Source: a virus. From it: 41,332 bases of DNA. The position numbers were made by a program, and so were the translations under genes. Under the pieces are notes generated by a model, which saw nothing but the letters and a program-made list of their open reading frames with translations, searched no databases and had not been told where the DNA came from. This document shows, in pieces, positions 30,366 through 39,899 of the stretch. Numbering within the stretch: the first letter of the stretch is position 1; each line of letters opens with the position of its first letter. The stretch covers positions 1-41,332 of the IMG/VR virus record IMGVR_UViG_3300005293_000042; one strand, given 5' to 3'.

Positions 30366-31250
30366 CTAGAAGTCGAACAGCCAGTCGTCGTCCGTGACGT
30401 CGGGGAACGTGTAGCCGTTGTTCGGGCGAGCCGAAACGACGGTGTCCTCCGTGATCGCAGGCTGAACGCCGGAAGCAACCGGCTCGCCGTCGATGTAGTA
30501 CGTCACGCCGGCCACCGCGGGGATGGTGATGACCTTGGTGGTGCTGTTGTAGGTAGGCGGCGTCGGGTTGACGACGGTCACGGTGCCCGAGAAGAGCGCG
30601 ATGACCTCAGCCGGGAGCGGCAGTCGGGGGTCAGTCCCGGCGGTACCGTAGAGGATGTCCTCGAGCTCCTGCAGCGCGGCTGCATTCACCTTGGTCGAGT
30701 CGATCGTAAGGGTAGCGGTCGGGTCGTACTCGGTCCCGCCCACGTTACCCACGGTGACCGGAGTCGTGGTGAGCTCCCAGCTGAACGTGATCGCCTCAGG
30801 CGAGTCGTTGATGGTCGCGTGCGCCTTCTCGGACGGAGCAGCGAGAGCGTTGTAGATGAGGTGCAGCTTGTAGCCGTACTTCAGGCCCTCGGTGTCGTTA
30901 CCGATCTTGGTGCGGTAGCTGAACCCGAACTGCTTGCGCGTCTGCTGACCGATCGTGATCCCAGGCTGCGGCTCAGCAGAGCCATCGCACTGAGCGAAGG
31001 AGTCAGGGTACGTGAAAGCCTCGATCGTGGCTGCGAACTCCTCAGCCGAGATCAGGTTCAGGTACTTGATGTTGTCCGCGTACTGCGGCGAAGCCTCAGC
31101 ACCGGTAGGCGACTCGGTGACGGTCGTCAGACCATTCCACGCCTCGCCCGTGTCGTAGTTACCGGCGTTGTCCGGGATGTAGAGAACACCGTGGTCGACA
31201 CCGGTCTCGTAGAGCCGCTCACCGACCTGATCCCACTGAATAACACTCAT
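30366..31250 (-). CDS. Major tail tube protein with extra C-terminal beta domain (294 aa)
   Basis: The ATG at 31250 has GAGGAGGAAT upstream. The N-terminal ~220 residues (MSVIQWDQVGERLYETGVDH, FGFSYRTKIGNDTEGLKYGY, ILYGTAGTDPRLPLP) form the tube fold shared with two downstream paralogues. The last ~70 residues (VITIPAVAGVTYYIDGEPV through NGYTFPDVTDDDWLFDF) form a beta domain that recurs at the end of the capsid protein (VVTIPTKAGVVYKNADTGT, GYYFPSNTDADWEF). Its first position in the tail genes and GC-rich codons suggest high expression. It polymerises into the tail tube; the extra domain should sit outside. Confidence 0.85.
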   Translation of the reverse strand: MSVIQWDQVGERLYETGVDHGVLYIPDNAGNYDTGEAWNGLTTVTESPTGAEASPQYADNIKYLNLISAEEFAATIEAFTYPDSFAQCDGSAEPQPGITIGQQTRKQFGFSYRTKIGNDTEGLKYGYKLHLIYNALAAPSEKAHATINDSPEAITFSWELTTTPVTVGNVGGTEYDPTATLTIDSTKVNAAALQELEDILYGTAGTDPRLPLPAEVIALFSGTVTVVNPTPPTYNSTTKVITIPAVAGVTYYIDGEPVASGVQPAITEDTVVSARPNNGYTFPDVTDDDWLFDF

Positions 31251-31888: not shown

Positions 31889-33829
31889 TCACGCGGAGGG
31901 GCGCGTGAACTCCCAGTCCGCGTCGGTGTTGCTCGGGAAGTAGTAACCCGTGGCCGGAACAGCCTCGACCTCGAGCGTGGCGCCAGCCGCAAGAGCGGTC
32001 TGCGGGCCAGCCGTCAGGGTGGTGCCCGTGTCAGCGTTCTTGTAGACGACGCCAGCCTTGGTCGGGATCGTCACCACGCCAGTGGCCGGAACGAAGGTCG
32101 GAACCGTCGGGTCAACCTGCGTACCAGTACCACGCTGGAAGACCAGCGCCGACTTGAACTTCGTGAGCGAGCCCGAGATCCGGGTCTCGTACAGGTACTT
32201 GTACTGGTTGTAGTCGATGTCGAAGTCGTCGAAGAACGTCGTCTCGCCGCCCTTGTCTGCACCGATGGTGTAGTCGGACATGTTCACGAGGATGGCGAGC
32301 AGCTCGCCACCGTTGACGCTCTCGTCGTTCATAACGTCGACCGTGACGATGTTCGACACACGAAGCTCGGACGCCAGCTCAGAGACACCGCTGTAGAGAC
32401 GGCGACCCATCTTGTCCTTGAGGAGGAGCAGGTCGGTCAGGAGGTCCTCGGTGCAGTACATGGTCGGGTTGCCCGAGCCACGGTACGTCGGACGCGCCCG
32501 GAGAATGGCCTCGATGAGGGCATCGCCGGAGACGTTCGCGGGGATCTCGACGTGGTGCGCGTAGAAGTCGTCGTCGTGCGCGATAGAGCGGATGCCGGCA
32601 CCGTCGGACAGGGCCGCAGGGTCGCGGATCTTGTCCTCGTCGTCGACCTCACGACCGTCACTGATGAGGATCGCGCGGGCGATCTCCTCCTCGAGCATGA
32701 GACGCATCTCCGCCTTGAGCCAGGCGACGACGTCCAGGTCCGTGATGTCGATGATGTCGTCACGGTCCAGCTTCTGCTTCTTGTAGACAGTGGTCGGCGT
32801 GGTGACTCGCTTGGAGAGCCCGAAGAACTCCTCCTTCTTCAGGTTACCCTTGATGTAACCCTTGGCGCGAGCCTCCTCGTGCGTGATGTCCGCCGAGAGG
32901 GACTTGATCCGCGAGAACGGCGACTTGCGGGCACCGGAAATAACTCCGTTGACCCACTCCTGCCGGCGCGAGATGAGCTCGGGGGTGTTCTGGATCGCCT
33001 TGGCGTCCGGGAACAGAAGCTCGATGTCGGTGATGCCGTACTCGCCGGCGTGCGCGATGAAGGACTCCTTGAAGGAGCCCATCTTCTGTGCGTCCTCGAC
33101 GATGGTCTTGAGCTGGTCGTGGGTCAGCTTCGGCCGCGCCTGCGTGGTCACGGCCTGGCTCTCGAACACGTTGTGCGTGATGGGCATGGCGGAGTCGCCT
33201 TCCTGGTGAGTAAGGTTGTTGTCGTCGGTGTCGCTGTGCTGAGCCGAAGCGCCCTCGAGCGCCTCGCCAATCATGTAGTGCACGACAGTCTTCTGCTTGT
33301 CGCTGAGAGTGTCGTACACATCCTTCAGGGTCTCGCCGCTCTCGGCCTCCGAAGAGTCCTCCGAGTCAGCGTGCTCGAGGCTGATTCCAGTAGTGATGAT
33401 GACCTCATCCTCCAGCTCGATCTGGTCGCCGTCCGAGTGCCGAATGGTGACGTTCTCGATCTTTGCGCCGGGGTTGGCGCCGGACAGAACCAGGCTGACC
33501 TCACGGATGGCGCCGTGGAAGACCTGCTTGGCGCGCTCGACCAGCTGGTTGGCCCAGATGGACAGCGAGTCGACGTCCCCGTGCTCGACAAGAGCCTGCG
33601 CGTTCTTGCCCTGCGGGGTGTCGTTGAAGAATCCATGAGCGTAGACGCCGTCGGCGCGGTGCTCAAGGATGGCGTAACCGAGAACGTTCTCGGGGTTCTG
33701 GTGGCCGTGCTGCCAGACCAGAGGAACACGGATCTTGTCCTGGTGCGCGAAGGCTTCGGGCATGATGGTGCGGCCGTCGGTGCACTTGAGACCTGCCTTA
33801 GTGGCCCAGCCACTAAAATTGGGTTCCAT
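31889..33829 (-). CDS. Fusion of head-maturation protease and HK97-type major capsid protein (646 aa)
   Basis: The ATG at 33829 has AAGGGAGA upstream. Residues about 1-130 are an S78-like protease: VPLVWQHGHQNP (His 41/43) and DVDSLSIWANQ (Ser 88 or 90). An acidic linker (about 145-214) precedes a capsid part with FESQAVTTQARPKLTHDQLK, a long central region and ISGSLTKFKSALVF near the end. The last ~70 residues (VVTIPTKAGVVYK, GYYFPSNTDADWEF) repeat the domain at the end of the major tail protein. An internal ATG at 33187 has AGGAAGG before it and could start a separate 432-residue capsid protein. Confidence 0.85.
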   Translation of the reverse strand: MEPNFSGWATKAGLKCTDGRTIMPEAFAHQDKIRVPLVWQHGHQNPENVLGYAILEHRADGVYAHGFFNDTPQGKNAQALVEHGDVDSLSIWANQLVERAKQVFHGAIREVSLVLSGANPGAKIENVTIRHSDGDQIELEDEVIITTGISLEHADSEDSSEAESGETLKDVYDTLSDKQKTVVHYMIGEALEGASAQHSDTDDNNLTHQEGDSAMPITHNVFESQAVTTQARPKLTHDQLKTIVEDAQKMGSFKESFIAHAGEYGITDIELLFPDAKAIQNTPELISRRQEWVNGVISGARKSPFSRIKSLSADITHEEARAKGYIKGNLKKEEFFGLSKRVTTPTTVYKKQKLDRDDIIDITDLDVVAWLKAEMRLMLEEEIARAILISDGREVDDEDKIRDPAALSDGAGIRSIAHDDDFYAHHVEIPANVSGDALIEAILRARPTYRGSGNPTMYCTEDLLTDLLLLKDKMGRRLYSGVSELASELRVSNIVTVDVMNDESVNGGELLAILVNMSDYTIGADKGGETTFFDDFDIDYNQYKYLYETRISGSLTKFKSALVFQRGTGTQVDPTVPTFVPATGVVTIPTKAGVVYKNADTGTTLTAGPQTALAAGATLEVEAVPATGYYFPSNTDADWEFTRPSA

Positions 33830-33855: not shown

Positions 33856-34455
33856 TCAACGGCTTTCATTGCCGTCTGCGGAGTTGGGCGAAACGTTGAA
33901 GCGAGGCTTAGACGAAGCGTGCTTAGCAAGCGCTGCCTTCAGAGCTTCACGAGCTTTCTCGATCTTCTCTGTAACCTCTTCGATCTGCTTCTGAAGCTGC
34001 TCGACTTCTTCCGAGGGCTTCTGGTTCTTCTCTCGGTACTCCTTAGCTCGCTCAGCATCCTTCTTCTTGTCAGCCGAGGACTTCTTCTCGGGCTCCTTGG
34101 AGTCGTCTTTCTTCTTTGTCTCCTTGGGGTCTACCCCAGAACGAACCTTCGCTGCCGCGACAAGGATAGCGAGCTCGGACTTGAGTCGATCGAGCCGACC
34201 CTTTAGTTGTGCGACTCGAGCTTCCATGGTTTGGGAAGCAGGTTTCTTCGGCGCGGCCTTAAGGACCGCTGTACGATTCACCCTAGAGGGCGACGAGGCC
34301 GTTGTTGCACGACCTTTGGGGTCTACGCTGCCGCCGGCTCGCCCCTTCAGCTTTCGCGTCCTAAGGTAATACTCTCTTCGGGCTTGAGCGTCGTAGCCAG
34401 CATGGGAAAGCGGAGTGTCTGCGTGCATTGCCAGAAACTCATCCACGTTTGACAT
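33856..34455 (-). CDS. Scaffold-like coiled-coil protein (199 aa)
   Basis: The ATG at 34455 overlaps the portal stop (TAATG) and has GGAGGAG before it. The N-terminus has REYYLRTRKLKGRAGG (about 27-42), a motif I associate with phage head-maturation proteins. The middle is Lys/Glu rich and the end (PSEEVEQLQKQIEEVTEKIE, KAREALKAALAKH) is a long coiled coil. This composition and the place between portal and capsid fit a scaffolding protein. The protease is encoded in the next gene and would digest it. Confidence 0.65.
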   Translation of the reverse strand: MSNVDEFLAMHADTPLSHAGYDAQARREYYLRTRKLKGRAGGSVDPKGRATTASSPSRVNRTAVLKAAPKKPASQTMEARVAQLKGRLDRLKSELAILVAAAKVRSGVDPKETKKKDDSKEPEKKSSADKKKDAERAKEYREKNQKPSEEVEQLQKQIEEVTEKIEKAREALKAALAKHASSKPRFNVSPNSADGNESR

Positions 34456-35753
34456 TACTCCTCCACTCCAAGAGTCTGGAAGACGTCGTCGAGCATCTTA
34501 TCGACCTCGTCGAGCGCCGCAGTTGCATCGTCTGAGCCAGGCTCAGCCTCAACAGCCGCTTCTGGAGCTGGCATGTTCGCGTTTCGAAGCTCATCCGCCT
34601 TAGGATCAGTCGAAGGCTTCATCTTAACGATGGAGCGAACCTCGTTAGCTGTCAGAATCTCGTTACGGGTGAACTTGTCTGCAATATCGGCAAGTTCGCT
34701 GACCGGAACAAGCTTGAAGGGGTCCGAGTAGTATTCGACGGACTGCTTTTGGGTGCGAGCAGTCTTAGTCAGGAAGGTGCGCTTCATAGCGTCCACGATC
34801 GAGTCCGAAATCGGCTCGAGCGTCCTGGAACGGTAGTTGAGCATCGCTGCTTCGTCTGCCGATCCTTCCATAACCGCCTTGTTGATGCCGAGCTCAGAAT
34901 ATAGCTGGGTCTTGAGCTCGACGATCTCCGCCATAAGCTGGTTCTCAGCAGGACGATTGAGCTGTGTGATCTTCTCGGTACCATCTGTATAGGCAATACC
35001 GTACTGGCTGCCCTTCAGCTGGAACTCTAGATCAGACCTACGCTGCTCGGCCTGCTGTCGTCTAGCCTCTGACTTAACCACATACGGCAGCTGAATAATG
35101 AGGTCGAGCTTGCCGGAACTAGTCCGCTCGTCCAGTGTATCCAGCATGTTAAGCTTACGAATAAGCCTCTGAAGGGTCGAGTTCGGCTCGTTCATGACGT
35201 AATACAACGGATTATCCGCCAACGCCACGTTACGCTTAGAAAGCGTGACTTCCTGCCGTTCTCCACGATCCTCGTTGTAAAGATTCACCGTCAGGTGCCT
35301 AGGGCGGAACTGAGTGACCGTTCCAACCCTCAGAGTACGAATATCGTAGTCCCCAGACAGCTCCGGGTTTCCGACGGTCGTTACTGGGACGATTGCTGCG
35401 GCACCGTCGTTAAGCATAGTGATGACGGCGTCTCGAAGAAGCGACTTGGCCGACTGATCGATATTGGCTTCGATCTTGAGACACTCATTCAGCCCGCTGT
35501 CGATCTCCTCGATGTAGTTTCCGTTGTCGTCGACGCGAACGTGACGAAAATCGGCTTGTGCTACGTCAATCGCAATGCGAGTGTAGATCGAGGCGATGAT
35601 CGTTCGCTCATTCGAGATGAAGAGGCGGGTTCGATCCGGTCGGGAGGCCCCGTAACTGGCCGGGCCAAGAAACGGCGTCTGTCCAGTAAATCGATCCTCT
35701 TCGTTTCGAAATACGTTCCAGGCCTGCTTCAAGCGTTCCCGTACGCTAACCAT
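34455..35753 (-). CDS. Portal protein (432 aa)
   Basis: The ATG at 35753 follows GAGGTGAGTT. The protein has SNERTIIASIYTRIAIDVAQ, SLLRDAVITMLNDGAAAIVP, VELKTQLYSELGINKAVMEG and SADEAAMLNYRSRTLEPISD, then FTRNEILTANEVRSIV, the typical run of HK97-like portals. An acidic tail follows. It forms the ring through which DNA enters and leaves the head. The GNAT gene ends three bases upstream. Confidence 0.85.
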   Translation of the reverse strand: MVSVRERLKQAWNVFRNEEDRFTGQTPFLGPASYGASRPDRTRLFISNERTIIASIYTRIAIDVAQADFRHVRVDDNGNYIEEIDSGLNECLKIEANIDQSAKSLLRDAVITMLNDGAAAIVPVTTVGNPELSGDYDIRTLRVGTVTQFRPRHLTVNLYNEDRGERQEVTLSKRNVALADNPLYYVMNEPNSTLQRLIRKLNMLDTLDERTSSGKLDLIIQLPYVVKSEARRQQAEQRRSDLEFQLKGSQYGIAYTDGTEKITQLNRPAENQLMAEIVELKTQLYSELGINKAVMEGSADEAAMLNYRSRTLEPISDSIVDAMKRTFLTKTARTQKQSVEYYSDPFKLVPVSELADIADKFTRNEILTANEVRSIVKMKPSTDPKADELRNANMPAPEAAVEAEPGSDDATAALDEVDKMLDDVFQTLGVEE

Positions 35754-35756
35754 AAC

Positions 35757-36302
35757 TCACCTCCCGTCCTTAGTTAGTTCGTAAACCCAGTCTTCTAGGT
35801 TTCCGTAACCTGGGGCAAACCCGAGGTCCTTGTCCTTTTTGAAGCCGATCTTTGAGTAAATATGCTTGGCTGGAGCCGCGTTAGAAGGAACCTGAAGTCG
35901 GACCTCGGTTATGTCAGTCTTCTTCTTAGAGGCCTCGATCAGTCCTCGAATGGCGGTCTCGCTATAGGCCTTACCTTGATGACTTGGAGCGATCTCTAAC
36001 CACTCGCCACGAACAGCATGCGGTCCGTCGTGCCACACTTGGAACGCGCCGACTTGTTCGCCTGCCGTGTTATGGATTCGCATCTCATAGGCGTAACCCT
36101 CAGGTTTGCGGCCCACTAACCTACCCGCAGCTATCGCAAGAGGTCCTGGGTCAGCTCTGTGAATTGTTAGGACGTCCCCATTTGGAGCTACAACGCGCGT
36201 CTTAGAACCCACCGGAGCTGCGTTAGCCACGCTTTCTCGGTACTCGGCTTTTCGAACGCCCCACTTCATGCCCTTGACACCAAAGTGTTCGAGCTCCGTC
36301 AT
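35757..36302 (-). CDS. GNAT acetyltransferase with N-terminal HxGVKGMKWGVRK tag
   Basis: The ATG at 36302 follows GAGGAGGTACTC and overlaps the previous stop (ATGA). Residues 6-18 (HFGVKGMKWGVRK) are the tag shared by four proteins here. WLEIAPSHQGKAYSETAIRG (acetyl-CoA-binding motif A) and NAAPAKHIYSKIGFKKDK (motif B) give a GNAT fold in the C-terminal half. It should acetylate a small molecule or protein. The substrate is unknown. Its place next to the portal and the tag suggest it may be packed into the head, which is inference. Confidence 0.75.
   Translation of the reverse strand: MTELEHFGVKGMKWGVRKAEYRESVANAAPVGSKTRVVAPNGDVLTIHRADPGPLAIAAGRLVGRKPEGYAYEMRIHNTAGEQVGAFQVWHDGPHAVRGEWLEIAPSHQGKAYSETAIRGLIEASKKKTDITEVRLQVPSNAAPAKHIYSKIGFKKDKDLGFAPGYGNLEDWVYELTKDGR
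36249..36287 (-). repeat. Tag repeat copy 4 (HFGVKGMKWGVRK)
   Basis: A 39-base coding repeat, nearly identical at DNA level to the copy at 37272-37310, encodes the tag of the GNAT protein. Confidence 0.85.
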
Positions 36303-36928
36303 GAGTACCTCCTCTCTAGCGAGGATTGATAGAATTCATCGTATTGTTCCTTGACCAGCGGCCAAATAACCTTCCGAATGTCGTCAAGATTCTTGACGCT
36401 GTCCGACATGCTCTTCGGAACGATGACCTCGTGCGAGATAGGCCGGCTAGAATGGTCAGTTCTTCCTTCAGGATCTACAAAGCGTGCTGCAACTTTACCA
36501 TCGCCGAAACGCTCGAAGAGTTCCTTAGACTGAATATCACTTGAGAGTGGAGAACGCTCGTACTCCGGAAGCGCGTCCGGAAGTCCGCCCTTTTCCAAGA
36601 ATCGAACCCCAAGATTCTTCCCACGAGAGGCATGCACCACTGCAGTTGGCTCTTGGAGGGCGATCTTCTCGGCCACCTTCTTTCCTGCGGAAACCTTGGG
36701 GGAATCATAGGTTAGCGGGCCTTCTTGCTGCATCTTGTACGCAACAAATGCAGCACCAGCTGCAGCAGTAATCGCAGCCGTCCCGATCAGAACCTTCTTG
36801 GCGTTCTCCTTGCGCTTGGTAATCTGTTCGGGCGTGCGAGGCGTCTTTGACGAGCCCTCGGGACCGTCCTTTCGAACACCCCATCGCATACCCTTAACAC
36901 CGAAGTGAATAAGATCCGACTCGTCCAT
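36299..36928 (-). CDS. Tagged membrane-associated protein of unknown function (209 aa)
   Basis: The ATG at 36928 has AGGAGGTGAAAC upstream. MDESDLIHFGVKGMRWGVRK is the tag region (8-20). After a polar linker, KVLIGTAAITAAAGAAFVAY (about 45-64) is a transmembrane segment. The rest is a soluble domain with PTAVVHASRGKNLGVRFLEK and SHEVIVPKSMSDSVKNLDDI. The soluble part does not match any family I know. It lies between another tagged gene and the tagged GNAT gene, in the cargo-like cluster near the portal. Confidence 0.7.
   Translation of the reverse strand: MDESDLIHFGVKGMRWGVRKDGPEGSSKTPRTPEQITKRKENAKKVLIGTAAITAAAGAAFVAYKMQQEGPLTYDSPKVSAGKKVAEKIALQEPTAVVHASRGKNLGVRFLEKGGLPDALPEYERSPLSSDIQSKELFERFGDGKVAARFVDPEGRTDHSSRPISHEVIVPKSMSDSVKNLDDIRKVIWPLVKEQYDEFYQSSLERRYS
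36869..36907 (-). repeat. Tag repeat copy 3 (HFGVKGMRWGVRK)
   Basis: A 39-base repeat encoding the tag; it carries Arg for Lys at position 9 of the tag and is the most diverged of the four at DNA level. Confidence 0.8.
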
Positions 36929-36944
36929 GTTTCACCTCCTGTCG

Positions 36945-37346
36945 TTACCCCTGAGCGGAGGCGTAGAGAAGCCCGACGGCAGCAGCACCAAGAGCGGCCC
37001 AAGAAACTCCGCCGACCCACTTCTCACCGGTGGTGTACTGCTTAGAGAGCTTGAAGTCTTCGCCCTCGTAGAACTCCTTCTCCAGCTTGCGCATGCTCTT
37101 CTCGGCCGCGTCCTGCCCCTTGGCAGTGCGAGCCACCATGAACTCCGCTGTGGCGTTCTGGTATGCGTACTTGCGGGCGCCCTGACGTACACGGGCGTTG
37201 AGGATGGCGTCCGTTCGTTCCTTACCCTTGAGTTTGGCCGGGCCACCACTTCCGCCACCGGAATCGTCCGGCTTACGAACGCCCCACTTCATGCCCTTGA
37301 CACCGAAGTGCGCAAGAGCCTCTTCGCTTGTAATATCGGTTGTCAT
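36945..37346 (-). CDS. Tagged small protein with C-terminal hydrophobic segment (133 aa)
   Basis: The ATG at 37346 follows AAGGAGG and overlaps the TerL stop (ATGA). The tag is at 13-25 (HFGVKGMKWGVRK), followed by a Gly/Ser/Pro linker. The body is basic and helical (RTDAILNARVRQGARKYAY, KSMRKLEKEFYEG), and the end (VSWAALGAAAVGLLYASA) could be a membrane segment. No family is recognised. It is translated together with TerL, so it is made during head assembly. Confidence 0.7.
   Translation of the reverse strand: MTTDITSEEALAHFGVKGMKWGVRKPDDSGGGSGGPAKLKGKERTDAILNARVRQGARKYAYQNATAEFMVARTAKGQDAAEKSMRKLEKEFYEGEDFKLSKQYTTGEKWVGGVSWAALGAAAVGLLYASAQG
37272..37310 (-). repeat. Tag repeat copy 2 (HFGVKGMKWGVRK)
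   Basis: A 39-base repeat with almost the same bases as the copy at 36249-36287, encoding the tag of the protein that follows TerL. Confidence 0.85.
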
Positions 37347-39088
37347 TCGAAAGCCTCCTTGTTGGCTTTGAAGGCTACGTATGCGTCCATAAGAGCGGAG
37401 ACGTTGTCAATCTTCTCGTCCATCCGCTTCTTCAGAAGCTTTCGGTTGCCATTGGTGTCCTCTTGCGTGATTGCGTTGCCCATGGTGAAAGACATGAGCT
37501 TCTCATCAAATATGAGCGCCCTCTGCTCAGCCAGCTTCTTAAGCTCACCAAGCGGGACGGACTCAGTCTTCGCACCCTGGATCACCTTGTCGACCCCGAA
37601 GGGTCCGTTCTCGGCGATGTAACGCTCGACGAATTCCTTAGCGTTGTAAGGGTCGTAACCGAGAGCTCGGATGTCATAACCCTTTTCATTAATATGCGCT
37701 TCGAGGTCGTCATAGACTTGCATCATGTCTAGGACGGTGCCGGGGAACACATGAAGTGTGCCCTCGGACAGGAACTCGTCATACTTCGCGCGCAAGGCGC
37801 CCGGGAGCTTCATAAGCGTGTACTCGGTGATGTAGCTTCGAGTCTTTACGCCGAACTGTTCCCTTGGAAGAGGGAACAGGAACGTGAACGCACAGAAGTC
37901 ATCACCCTGCGACAGGTCCGCGCCAATCGCGCAAGGGAGCTGCCAGAAGAGACGATGACGGTGGGGTTTGGTCTCCTCGTACGTGAAGAAGTACGTAAAG
38001 CCTTCCATTGGGATGCCGAACCTCTTTGCGAGGATGTCGTTGCGTGTTGCTGGAGCAGCTTCCGCACGCTCGACGTCCTGTTGGTACACCTCGTACGAAA
38101 CCGTGATGCCAATGTTCGGGTTAGCCTTGATCCACATCTCTGGTTGGTTGACTTCCTCTACCTTGTCGAGACGGTAGTAAAAGATCGAGATGTGTGGCGC
38201 AACGAAGTCGCCCTTAAGGATGGAAAGTAGTTCCATTTTGATAGTGTCACCAGCACCGTTTCGAACGGTGCCTTCAGAGCTGATGGCAACGATGAGATAC
38301 TCTTCGTGCTTCGAAGCGCCCTGCTCAATTGCTCCGATGACGTCCTCTCTGATGTCGCCAGACAGCCACTCATCAACCGTGCTGTACTTGGGTCGGAGAC
38401 CCTGAAGCTTGTTGATGGTCATTGGACGAATCTCGAGCAGCGATCCGGTCAGGAAGTTCTCTACGCCACGCTTGGTGGAGGTGAGCTTAACTCGAGTTGC
38501 CCTAGACCCGGTGGTGTTCTGAAGCGAGCCCTCTGTCAGGAACTTAAACAGAGGGCCCTTGGCCCTAGTGATGGACGTCCTAATGGGCGACATCACTTCT
38601 TCGGCCTGCTTCATAGTAGGTGCCGTTGTGATCTGGTGCGTCGTGGAGGTGTCGACGTTGAGGAAGTAGTTCTGAAGGAAGCTTGCGTACATCGACTTAG
38701 CCGACCCACGCGCGACGATCAGGTACTGCTTCTTAGTCAACCTAAGCTTCACTCGCTTGGTCACGTGGTGACCTGACTTACCATGCTCTCCGGGAACGTA
38801 AACGCTCCGGTCGACGAAGTAGAACCACGAGAGGAGTTGCTCCGCCCATAGCTTGAAGCTTTCGAGCAACCTAAGATCTCCGCCATCTGTTAGTGTTAGC
38901 TCGTTCTCGCAATAGAGAATGAAGCCGTCGATGGCTCGGTCGTCGTAGTAGATGTTTGGGTTTTCGATGAGTGCGTCGATGCGGTTCATCTCCAGTGAGA
39001 TGTTCTCATTGACAGGAATCTCGCCTCTGAGCACAGCATCTCTAAACAGCCCGTAATAAATAGGCGTCGCCGTATTGGACAACCCCAT
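37343..39088 (-). CDS. terL: Terminase large subunit (581 aa)
   Basis: The ATG at 39088 follows AAAGGGGG. The ATPase half has LIVARGSAKSMYASF (Walker A-like, about 123-137) and YSTVDEWLSGD (Walker B, about 235-245), with ISSEGT as the coupling motif. The nuclease half has IGADLSQGDDFCAF (Asp 391) and LGYDPYNAKEFV (Asp 479), the metal-binding acids of the RNase H-like fold. It packs DNA into the head and cuts it. Tagged genes flank it on both sides. Confidence 0.95.
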   Translation of the reverse strand: MGLSNTATPIYYGLFRDAVLRGEIPVNENISLEMNRIDALIENPNIYYDDRAIDGFILYCENELTLTDGGDLRLLESFKLWAEQLLSWFYFVDRSVYVPGEHGKSGHHVTKRVKLRLTKKQYLIVARGSAKSMYASFLQNYFLNVDTSTTHQITTAPTMKQAEEVMSPIRTSITRAKGPLFKFLTEGSLQNTTGSRATRVKLTSTKRGVENFLTGSLLEIRPMTINKLQGLRPKYSTVDEWLSGDIREDVIGAIEQGASKHEEYLIVAISSEGTVRNGAGDTIKMELLSILKGDFVAPHISIFYYRLDKVEEVNQPEMWIKANPNIGITVSYEVYQQDVERAEAAPATRNDILAKRFGIPMEGFTYFFTYEETKPHRHRLFWQLPCAIGADLSQGDDFCAFTFLFPLPREQFGVKTRSYITEYTLMKLPGALRAKYDEFLSEGTLHVFPGTVLDMMQVYDDLEAHINEKGYDIRALGYDPYNAKEFVERYIAENGPFGVDKVIQGAKTESVPLGELKKLAEQRALIFDEKLMSFTMGNAITQEDTNGNRKLLKKRMDEKIDNVSALMDAYVAFKANKEAFE

Positions 39089-39102
39089 CGCTAACCCCCT
39101 TT

Positions 39103-39513
39103 CTACTTCTTCTTCGGGTTCTTAAGACCCTTGCTCTCGAGTAGATCGCCTACTGCCTTGGAGATGACGTCGTTGATGGCCTTCTTGATCTGCGTCCGCA
39201 TGATGTCGCCAGCAAACTTCGCCGCACCATTACCAATCTTTGCGCCCGCAGACGGGCCCTGCAGTCTAGAATACTGCTGCTCGAGGTTGAGGCGAGTAAC
39301 GTACTCCTGAAGTTCCTGATTAGACAGCGCAGCGGTACCCTTGGCCTTGATGACCTTAGCGTGCGCGTCAGCCTTTCGAGCATCAGCAGATGCGCCCTCG
39401 GAGGATCGACTCAGCTTTCCGCCCGAGTCACCGCTCTTCTTGACGCCCCACTTCATACCCTTGACACCGTAGTGAATCAGGGCATCAGAGTCGGCTCCAC
39501 TGGCGGTTGCCAT
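39103..39513 (-). CDS. Tagged small helical protein (136 aa)
   Basis: The ATG at 39513 follows GGGAGGG and gives a tag at 14-26 (HYGVKGMKWGVKK). A linker of Ser, Gly and Ala follows, then an alpha-helical body (ALSNQELQEYVTRLNLEQQY, KIGNGAAKFAGDIMRTQIKK) with a basic end (GLKNPKKK). It overlaps the connector gene by 37 bases. The body has no known domain. Its place directly before TerL and the tag link it to head assembly. Confidence 0.75.
   Translation of the reverse strand: MATASGADSDALIHYGVKGMKWGVKKSGDSGGKLSRSSEGASADARKADAHAKVIKAKGTAALSNQELQEYVTRLNLEQQYSRLQGPSAGAKIGNGAAKFAGDIMRTQIKKAINDVISKAVGDLLESKGLKNPKKK
39436..39474 (-). repeat. Tag repeat copy 1 (HYGVKGMKWGVKK)
   Basis: A 39-base repeat encoding the tag; Tyr replaces Phe and Lys replaces Arg relative to copies 2 and 4. 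Confidence 0.8.
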
Positions 39514-39851
39514 GCGATTCCCTCCCTGTAGACGTTGATGCGCCACTCCAGCTCCTGGATCTGCTCCTTGACGGCTGTGATGGCGTATGAGGAAGTTGGA
39601 GGATCGAAGAGAAGGCGGACTCGGAGAAAGACATAGGTCTTTACCGAGTTAAGCCGAGGATCTCCTTCGAGGAACTGGGACCACAAGGCTGTGGCGTCCT
39701 CGATCATGAAGCCGTTAGGTGGCCCGACCCCAAGCTGATTCAGCGTGGAGAATACCGAGTTGATGTGAGTAATCACATCGAGATCGAAAGCCGGATCTTC
39801 AGGCGCAATGTTAAGAATCTTCTTGATGCTCTTGAGGATGCTATCTTCCAT
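39477..39851 (-). CDS. Head-tail connector-like protein (124 aa)
   Basis: The ATG at 39851 has AAGGAGG nine bases upstream; a GTG at 39860 is too close to it. The helical protein (MEDSILKSIKKILNIAPEDP, DVITHINSVFSTLNQLG, YVFLRVRLLFDPP) follows the pattern of phage gp6-like head-tail connector (adaptor) proteins. Its position before TerL, not after the capsid gene, is less common. The connector would bind the portal ring. Confidence 0.7.
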   Translation of the reverse strand: MEDSILKSIKKILNIAPEDPAFDLDVITHINSVFSTLNQLGVGPPNGFMIEDATALWSQFLEGDPRLNSVKTYVFLRVRLLFDPPTSSYAITAVKEQIQELEWRINVYREGIAWQPPVEPTLMP

Positions 39852-39899
39852 GGTGGTCACCTCCTTAAAACTGGTTCCATTTTGACAGTTGGTGAAGAA

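What the first reader, a model, noticed from the sequence alone, without database searches (positions are those of the whole stretch)
35757..39513. Four different proteins share one N-terminal peptide, HxGVKGMKWGVRK
The tag is at residues 6-26 in proteins at 39103-39513, 36945-37346, 36299-36928 and 35757-36302, while the bodies have nothing in common: one is a GNAT enzyme, one has a membrane segment. The tag is also nearly identical at the DNA level, so it has been copied or strongly selected. A short shared peptide on unrelated proteins between terminase and portal suggests a head-loading or scaffold-binding signal. Similar KWGV motifs are known in other phages, but the role is not settled.
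Basis: partly seen in the sequence, partly recalled or inferred. Interest (0 to 1): 0.75.

Follow-up and report, generated by a model that had tools for sequence, protein, structure and literature searches.

The report
Shared address tag on phage head-gene cargo
Phages of one capsid lineage put the same short peptide on the front of hundreds of otherwise unrelated proteins encoded beside their DNA-packaging genes, most likely an address label that loads those proteins into the virus head so they are injected with the DNA.

Summary
Four ATG-started proteins with unrelated bodies share Lx-HxGVKGM[KR]WGV[RK]K near the N-terminus. Pfam already catalogues the peptide as DUF7211 (PF23847), function unknown, and I found no paper mentioning it. 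I surveyed 490 distinct tagged proteins. They fall into 254 body clusters, of which 201 are singletons. 479/479 tags lie on the TerL strand, and 475 lie within 5 kb of TerL. The TerL-portal gap (16 bp to 6.8 kb) tracks the number of tagged genes in it (r=0.87). In eight annotated phages 38 of 41 genes in that gap are tagged. In cultured phages the tag and the HK97-type protease-major-capsid fusion have nearly the same distribution (238 versus 244 records). Tags found 19-31 kb from TerL still sit in genomes with that capsid. Cargo includes GNATs, RNA ligase/2H phosphoesterases, toxin-type domains and a 46-member family with an ADP-ribosyltransferase/RES-like fold. Lactococcus phage 1706 gp07, annotated 'structural protein', carries two tags. 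Both AlphaFold models leave the tag disordered. Best explanation: a head-loading linear motif, functionally like T4's capsid targeting sequence, for effectors injected with the DNA. The receptor, virion location and injection are not shown. The 'copied at DNA level' reading is weak: synonymous codons have diverged.

The parts
39103..39513 (-). Tagged protein 1 (136 aa): N-terminal tag, linker, LSNQELQ...RLNLEQQY helical hairpin; the conserved 'core' tagged protein 5' of TerL
   Evidence: DUF7211 40.9 bits; family of 157 tagged proteins, 144 of them 5' of TerL; AlphaFold model with confident hairpin 43-84 and disordered tag
39436..39474 (-). Tag 1 HYGVKGMKWGVKK
36945..37346 (-). Tagged protein 2 (133 aa), C-terminal hydrophobic segment; small family of 8
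   Evidence: DUF7211 45.5 bits
37272..37310 (-). Tag 2 HFGVKGMKWGVRK
36299..36928 (-). Tagged protein 3 (209 aa), hydrophobic segment then unknown domain (phrog_38171)
   Evidence: DUF7211 38.2 bits; phrog_38171 E 2e-35
36869..36907 (-). Tag 3 HFGVKGMRWGVRK
35757..36302 (-). Tagged protein 4 (181 aa), GNAT acetyltransferase body
   Evidence: DUF7211 42.2 bits; Acetyltransf_1 23.3 bits against cut-off 20.7; full-length GNAT relatives with the tag in Streptomyces, Arthrobacter and Gordonia phages
36249..36287 (-). Tag 4 HFGVKGMKWGVRK
37343..39088 (-). Terminase large subunit (one border of the cargo site)
   Evidence: PF20441 E 1e-34, phrog_9
34455..35753 (-). Portal protein (other border of the cargo site)
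   Evidence: PF04860 E 4e-17
31889..33829 (-). Prohead protease-major capsid fusion, nearly co-extensive with the tag; candidate receptor (inference)
   Evidence: Peptidase_S78 and Phage_capsid, phrog_3270 E 1e-231
33856..34455 (-). Coiled-coil protein between portal and capsid (phrog_12541) with its own motif AREYYLRTRKLKGR; possible scaffold
   Evidence: found in only a subset of tagged genomes
39477..39860 (-). Head-tail connector (Phage_connect_2)
   Evidence: PF24829 E 5e-39

Best explanation
The 13-residue peptide (consensus Lx-H[YHF]G[VI][KL]GM[KR]WG[VI]R[RK]) is a flexible linear sorting motif that loads diverse proteins into the procapsid of phages with the protease-major-capsid fusion head, probably by binding a head component during assembly. 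The loaded proteins then leave the head with the DNA and act early in the new host. The TerL-portal gap is the main slot where tagged cargo genes are gained and lost. The tagged helical-hairpin protein 5' of TerL is the constant member. Shown by sequence: the tag, the body diversity, the head-module linkage, the cargo slot and the co-distribution with one capsid lineage. Predicted by model: tag disorder and the ADP-ribosyltransferase/RES-like fold of one cargo family. Inferred: binding, loading, ejection and the receptor.
For: Location: 479/479 tags on the TerL strand, 475 within 5 kb, 362/367 5' of portal. In 28 viral records of 42-77 kb, 88 of 93 tags lie within 5 kb of TerL where 18% is expected (binomial p 7e-59). 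TerL-portal gap versus tagged genes r=0.87, n=150; 38/41 annotated genes in the gap are tagged in eight phages. Capsid link: genus tallies nearly identical for tag (238 records) and protease-capsid fusion (244 records); 41/41 loci with enough flank have portal and fusion; 28/28 near-complete records have the fusion. Four loci that seemed exceptions have TerL and the fusion on the same contig, with some tags 19-31 kb away, so the tag goes with the head type, not with map position. Cargo: 254 body clusters; Pfam shows GNAT, Gln_amidase, Ntox50, DUF6883, Barstar and 2'-5' RNA ligase/LigT. The 46-member family matches RES/ADP-ribosyltransferase folds (MbcT Z 8.4, then diphtheria-toxin-type, NatT, Arr, Tpt1 and a cyanophage pre-ejectosome domain Z 6.5). 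Phage 1706 gp07, annotated 'structural protein', has two tags. One portal carries the tag near its C-terminus. The tag is disordered in both models.
Against: No virion proteomics for a tagged cargo was found in open literature. The 1706 'structural protein' label is an annotation whose source paper I could not read. TerL, portal and connector travel with the same lineage, so the partner is not identified. No cleavage site was tested. ART-fold Z-scores are middling and catalytic residues were not checked. Most cargo has no predicted function, so effector roles are extrapolated from a minority.
Confidence: 0.66

Rival explanations
1. The tag docks proteins on the outside of the packaging machine (terminase, portal or connector) or acts as an assembly chaperone signal; tagged proteins help build or fill the head but are not packaged.
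For: Tight linkage to TerL and portal; TerL and portal of this lineage co-occur with the tag just as the capsid does.
Against: Extreme body diversity and enzyme/toxin-type domains do not look like assembly factors; 1706 gp07 is annotated structural.
Confidence: 0.13
2. Tagged proteins are mainly minor structural or scaffold-like core proteins of the head; the tag binds the shell and the bodies are dispensable filler under relaxed selection.
For: The conserved helical core protein 5' of TerL is the commonest tagged protein; weak Phage_scaffold matches in two members; lysine-rich bodies.
Against: Folded enzyme families (GNAT, ART/RES-like, RNA ligase) recur as cargo with conserved positions.
Confidence: 0.12
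3. The tag works after entry, for example binding a host membrane or host protein, and the head-gene location only reflects expression timing.
For: Several cargo proteins have hydrophobic segments.
Against: Hosts range from Actinobacteria to Lactococcus and gut Firmicutes while the tag follows one capsid lineage, so a host target is less likely than a phage one.
Confidence: 0.05
4. The tag is only a recombination or duplication scar, or a DNA packaging element, repeated at the DNA level.
For: Tag DNA is 74-92% identical within the window; a modest excess of shared codons.
Against: Synonymous codons are largely diverged, 2% of pairs fully identical; the tag is always in frame, and tags 19-31 kb away still follow the capsid type.
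Confidence: 0.03

Closest known systems
Pfam PF23847 (DUF7211)
   Same: The tag is this family: all four window proteins and all 240 sampled tagged proteins match it.
   Different: Pfam gives no function, no partner and no genome context; the head-lineage link and cargo slot are from this work.
Phage T4 capsid targeting sequence (CTS) of internal proteins
   Same: A short conserved peptide is the only common part of a very diverse set of proteins encapsidated in the prohead; T4 internal protein I is injected and blocks a host restriction enzyme (PMC3012670). From general knowledge, T4 Alt, an ADP-ribosyltransferase, is loaded likewise.
   Different: Different phage lineage and different peptide; here the protease is fused to the capsid protein; tag cleavage and loading are untested.
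MuF polymorphic toxins of temperate phages
   Same: Head-module genes with variable toxin/effector domains, proposed to be loaded in the head and injected (PMC5576092); Ntox50 occurs in both.
   Different: MuF is a full domain; none in the window. Here a 13-residue peptide takes that place and occurs on many separate genes per genome.
Encapsulin cargo-loading/targeting peptides
   Same: A short terminal peptide sends unrelated enzymes into an HK97-fold shell (PMC8346489).
   Different: Encapsulins are cellular compartments with mostly C-terminal peptides; no homology was tested or claimed.

Membership tests
DUF7211 (PF23847) | Match above Pfam's curated cut-off of 27 bits | tested here: met
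   38.2-45.5 bits for the four proteins
T4-type capsid targeting sequence | Short shared peptide on otherwise unrelated proteins of the head gene region | tested here: met
   254 body clusters among 490 tagged proteins; 475/479 within 5 kb of TerL
T4-type capsid targeting sequence | Tagged proteins are inside the virion | tested here: inconclusive
   Only the annotation of phage 1706 gp07 as 'structural protein'; source paper not held
T4-type capsid targeting sequence | Peptide removed by the prohead protease | not testable with these tools
   A protease-capsid fusion is present but no cleavage data exist
T4-type capsid targeting sequence | Peptide sufficient to load a foreign protein | not testable with these tools
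   Needs an experiment
T4-type capsid targeting sequence | Sequence homology to the T4 CTS | not tested
   T4 CTS letters were not compared
MuF polymorphic toxins | MuF domain PF04233 | tested here: not met
   0 matches in the window record; control genomes ring
Encapsulin cargo systems | HK97-fold shell with short peptide on cargo | tested here: inconclusive
   Phage_capsid (HK97-fold) matched 25.4 bits against 24.2; peptide-shell binding untested
GNAT acetyltransferase (protein 35757-36302) | Acetyltransf_1 above cut-off | tested here: met
   23.3 bits against 20.7
ADP-ribosyltransferase/RES fold (commonest cargo family, not in the window) | Fold match to solved members | tested here: inconclusive
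   MbcT Z 8.4 over 144 residues, then many ART members at Z 4-7; catalytic residues not verified; no Pfam family match

The most novel reading that the evidence does not exclude
The peptide is a general cargo-loading code read directly by the protease-capsid fusion shell, an encapsulin-like system in a live phage lineage, giving these phages an open-ended injected effector set that is swapped gene by gene in the TerL-portal slot.
Probability: 0.3. Interest if true: 0.88.

Novelty: new variant of a known kind. Interest (0 to 1): 0.7.

Why it matters
If right, a 13-residue signature lists the injected cargo of an entire head lineage (about 240 cultured actinophages and Firmicutes phages and many uncultured ones). 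It would turn hundreds of 'hypothetical proteins' into candidate anti-defence or host-takeover proteins. It would also give a simple handle for loading proteins into these heads and a clear test of how tailed phages choose injected proteins outside T4.

Tried and rejected
Literature search for the peptide or DUF7211: nothing relevant. PDB search with the tag: no match. Virion mass-spectrometry papers: Thermobifida P318 and Arthrobacter ArV2 have separate capsid and scaffold or protease genes and are not this lineage; the Scarif paper has no proteomics; the 1706 and ReqiPepy6 source papers are not held. phrog_12541 as the tag receptor: rejected as the general receptor because it is present in only a subset. 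83 of 119 genome loci were chance DNA matches and were excluded by the strict motif; none of them has TerL, portal or capsid homologues. Four loci seemed to be exceptions without head genes; whole-genome searches put TerL and the fusion capsid on the same contig for all four. Profile comparison of window protein 3 with the ART-like family: only the tag aligns. Foldseek with the core model: matches only relatives and noise.

Full report
OBSERVATION. The four ORFs are real, start with ATG and carry the peptide at residues 14, 13, 8 and 6. Pfam recognises the peptide as DUF7211, a 25-residue family of unknown function, in all four. Outside the tag the proteins are unrelated: body-to-body blastp gives nothing better than E about 1, and a profile comparison of two tagged families aligns only the tag. 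Tag DNA is 74-92% identical and the similarity stops sharply after it. Across 591 tag pairs in the same locus, identical codons exceed the codon-usage expectation only modestly (0.52 against 0.43), and only 2% of pairs are fully identical. Selection on the peptide, not recent copying, is therefore the main cause.

SETTING. Gene order on the minus strand is: HNH (by position), VanY-like lysin, connector, tagged core protein, TerL, three tagged proteins, portal, coiled-coil protein, protease-major-capsid fusion. The same order recurs in Streptomyces, Gordonia, Arthrobacter, Rhodococcus and Microbacterium phages. Lactococcus and Faecalibacterium phages have a shorter version.

CENSUS. DNA-pattern scans of viral contigs and bacterial genomes gave 505 tagged ORFs, 490 of them distinct. 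They form 254 body clusters, 201 of them singletons. Every tag near a TerL is on its strand, and 475/479 are within 5 kb. In 28 viral records of 42-77 kb, 88/93 tags are within 5 kb of TerL against 18% expected. The gap between TerL and portal runs from 16 bp with no tagged gene to 6.8 kb with eight (r=0.87). In eight annotated phages 38 of 41 genes in the gap are tagged; the three exceptions are a secreted bacteriocin-like protein, a 46-residue ORF and a collagen-like protein.

CAPSID LINK. In 50,697 phage records the tag query hits 238 and the protease-capsid fusion 244, with almost identical genus counts. The main shortfall is Lactococcus (6 against 13), where at least P078 has degenerate tags. 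I compared genus counts, not record lists. TerL is found more widely but its close matches number the same (243 at 60-80% identity), and portal is co-extensive apart from weak Streptococcus hits, so the partner cannot be singled out. All 41 tagged loci with enough flank carry both portal and fusion. Four loci seemed to break the rule; genome-wide search showed TerL and the fusion on the same contig in each, with some tags 19-31 kb away. A fifth short contig (L182) could not be judged. The tag thus follows the head type even when it is far from the head genes, which argues for a trans-acting peptide.

CARGO. The constant tagged protein 5' of TerL (157 relatives, 144 of them 5' of TerL) is predicted as a helical hairpin with a disordered tag. 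In different phages it is fused to a GNAT, an RNA ligase or a phosphoesterase, sometimes as tag-domain-tag-core. Elsewhere the cargo includes GNAT, Gln_amidase, Ntox50, DUF6883, Barstar and 2'-5' RNA ligase/LigT domains. The commonest non-core family (46 members) was folded (mean pLDDT 81, tag again disordered). It matches RES and ADP-ribosyltransferase folds: MbcT at Z 8.4, then many ART members and a domain of a cyanophage pre-ejectosome at Z 6.5. Middling Z-scores and unverified catalytic residues keep this a fold-level lead.

VIRION EVIDENCE. Phage 1706 gp07 carries two tags and is annotated 'structural protein'; ReqiPoco6 gp020, tagged, is annotated as similar to it. The 1706 paper is not held, so the experimental basis is unverified. 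One portal has a tag near its C-terminus.

MECHANISM. A disordered, sharply bounded peptide on many unrelated proteins, encoded in the head module and nearly confined to one head lineage, is best explained as a head-loading signal, with injection of the cargo inferred from its effector-like domains. [quoted passage not shown] MuF toxins (PMC5576092) and encapsulin peptides (PMC8346489) are further parallels. It works like these; membership is not claimed. Confidence 0.66.

Noticed in passing
window 31889-33829 and 30366-31250: The capsid fusion and the tail-tube-like protein downstream share a C-terminal beta-type domain (44% identity over 75 residues, E 8e-12); related phages show the same pairing.
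   Followed up: partly
window 33856-34455: phrog_12541 coiled-coil protein has its own conserved N-terminal motif YDPVKAREYYLRTRxLKGR, and in some relatives begins FLAHY like the tag; possibly a second head-sorting motif.
   Followed up: partly
L126:9390-9662: Arthrobacter phage Qui has an untagged, signal-peptide-bearing small protein (bacteriocin-like by eye) inside the cargo slot.
   Followed up: no
L124:3196-3699; L127:3069-3548: Annotated starts of GirlPower gp6 and Nightmare gp6 fall inside the tag (MKWG...), so deposited proteins lack half of it.
   Followed up: yes
records of L015 and L033 (G003, G009): The capsid-fusion matches contain in-frame stops (TAG/TAA; TGA), possibly alternative genetic codes or sequence errors.
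   Followed up: no
L322:5181-6476: Lactococcus phage P078 portal homologue is annotated 'tail length tape-measure protein'.
   Followed up: no
L108 (ORF of about 1115 aa): One protein carries three tags, like a fusion of three cargo genes.
   Followed up: partly
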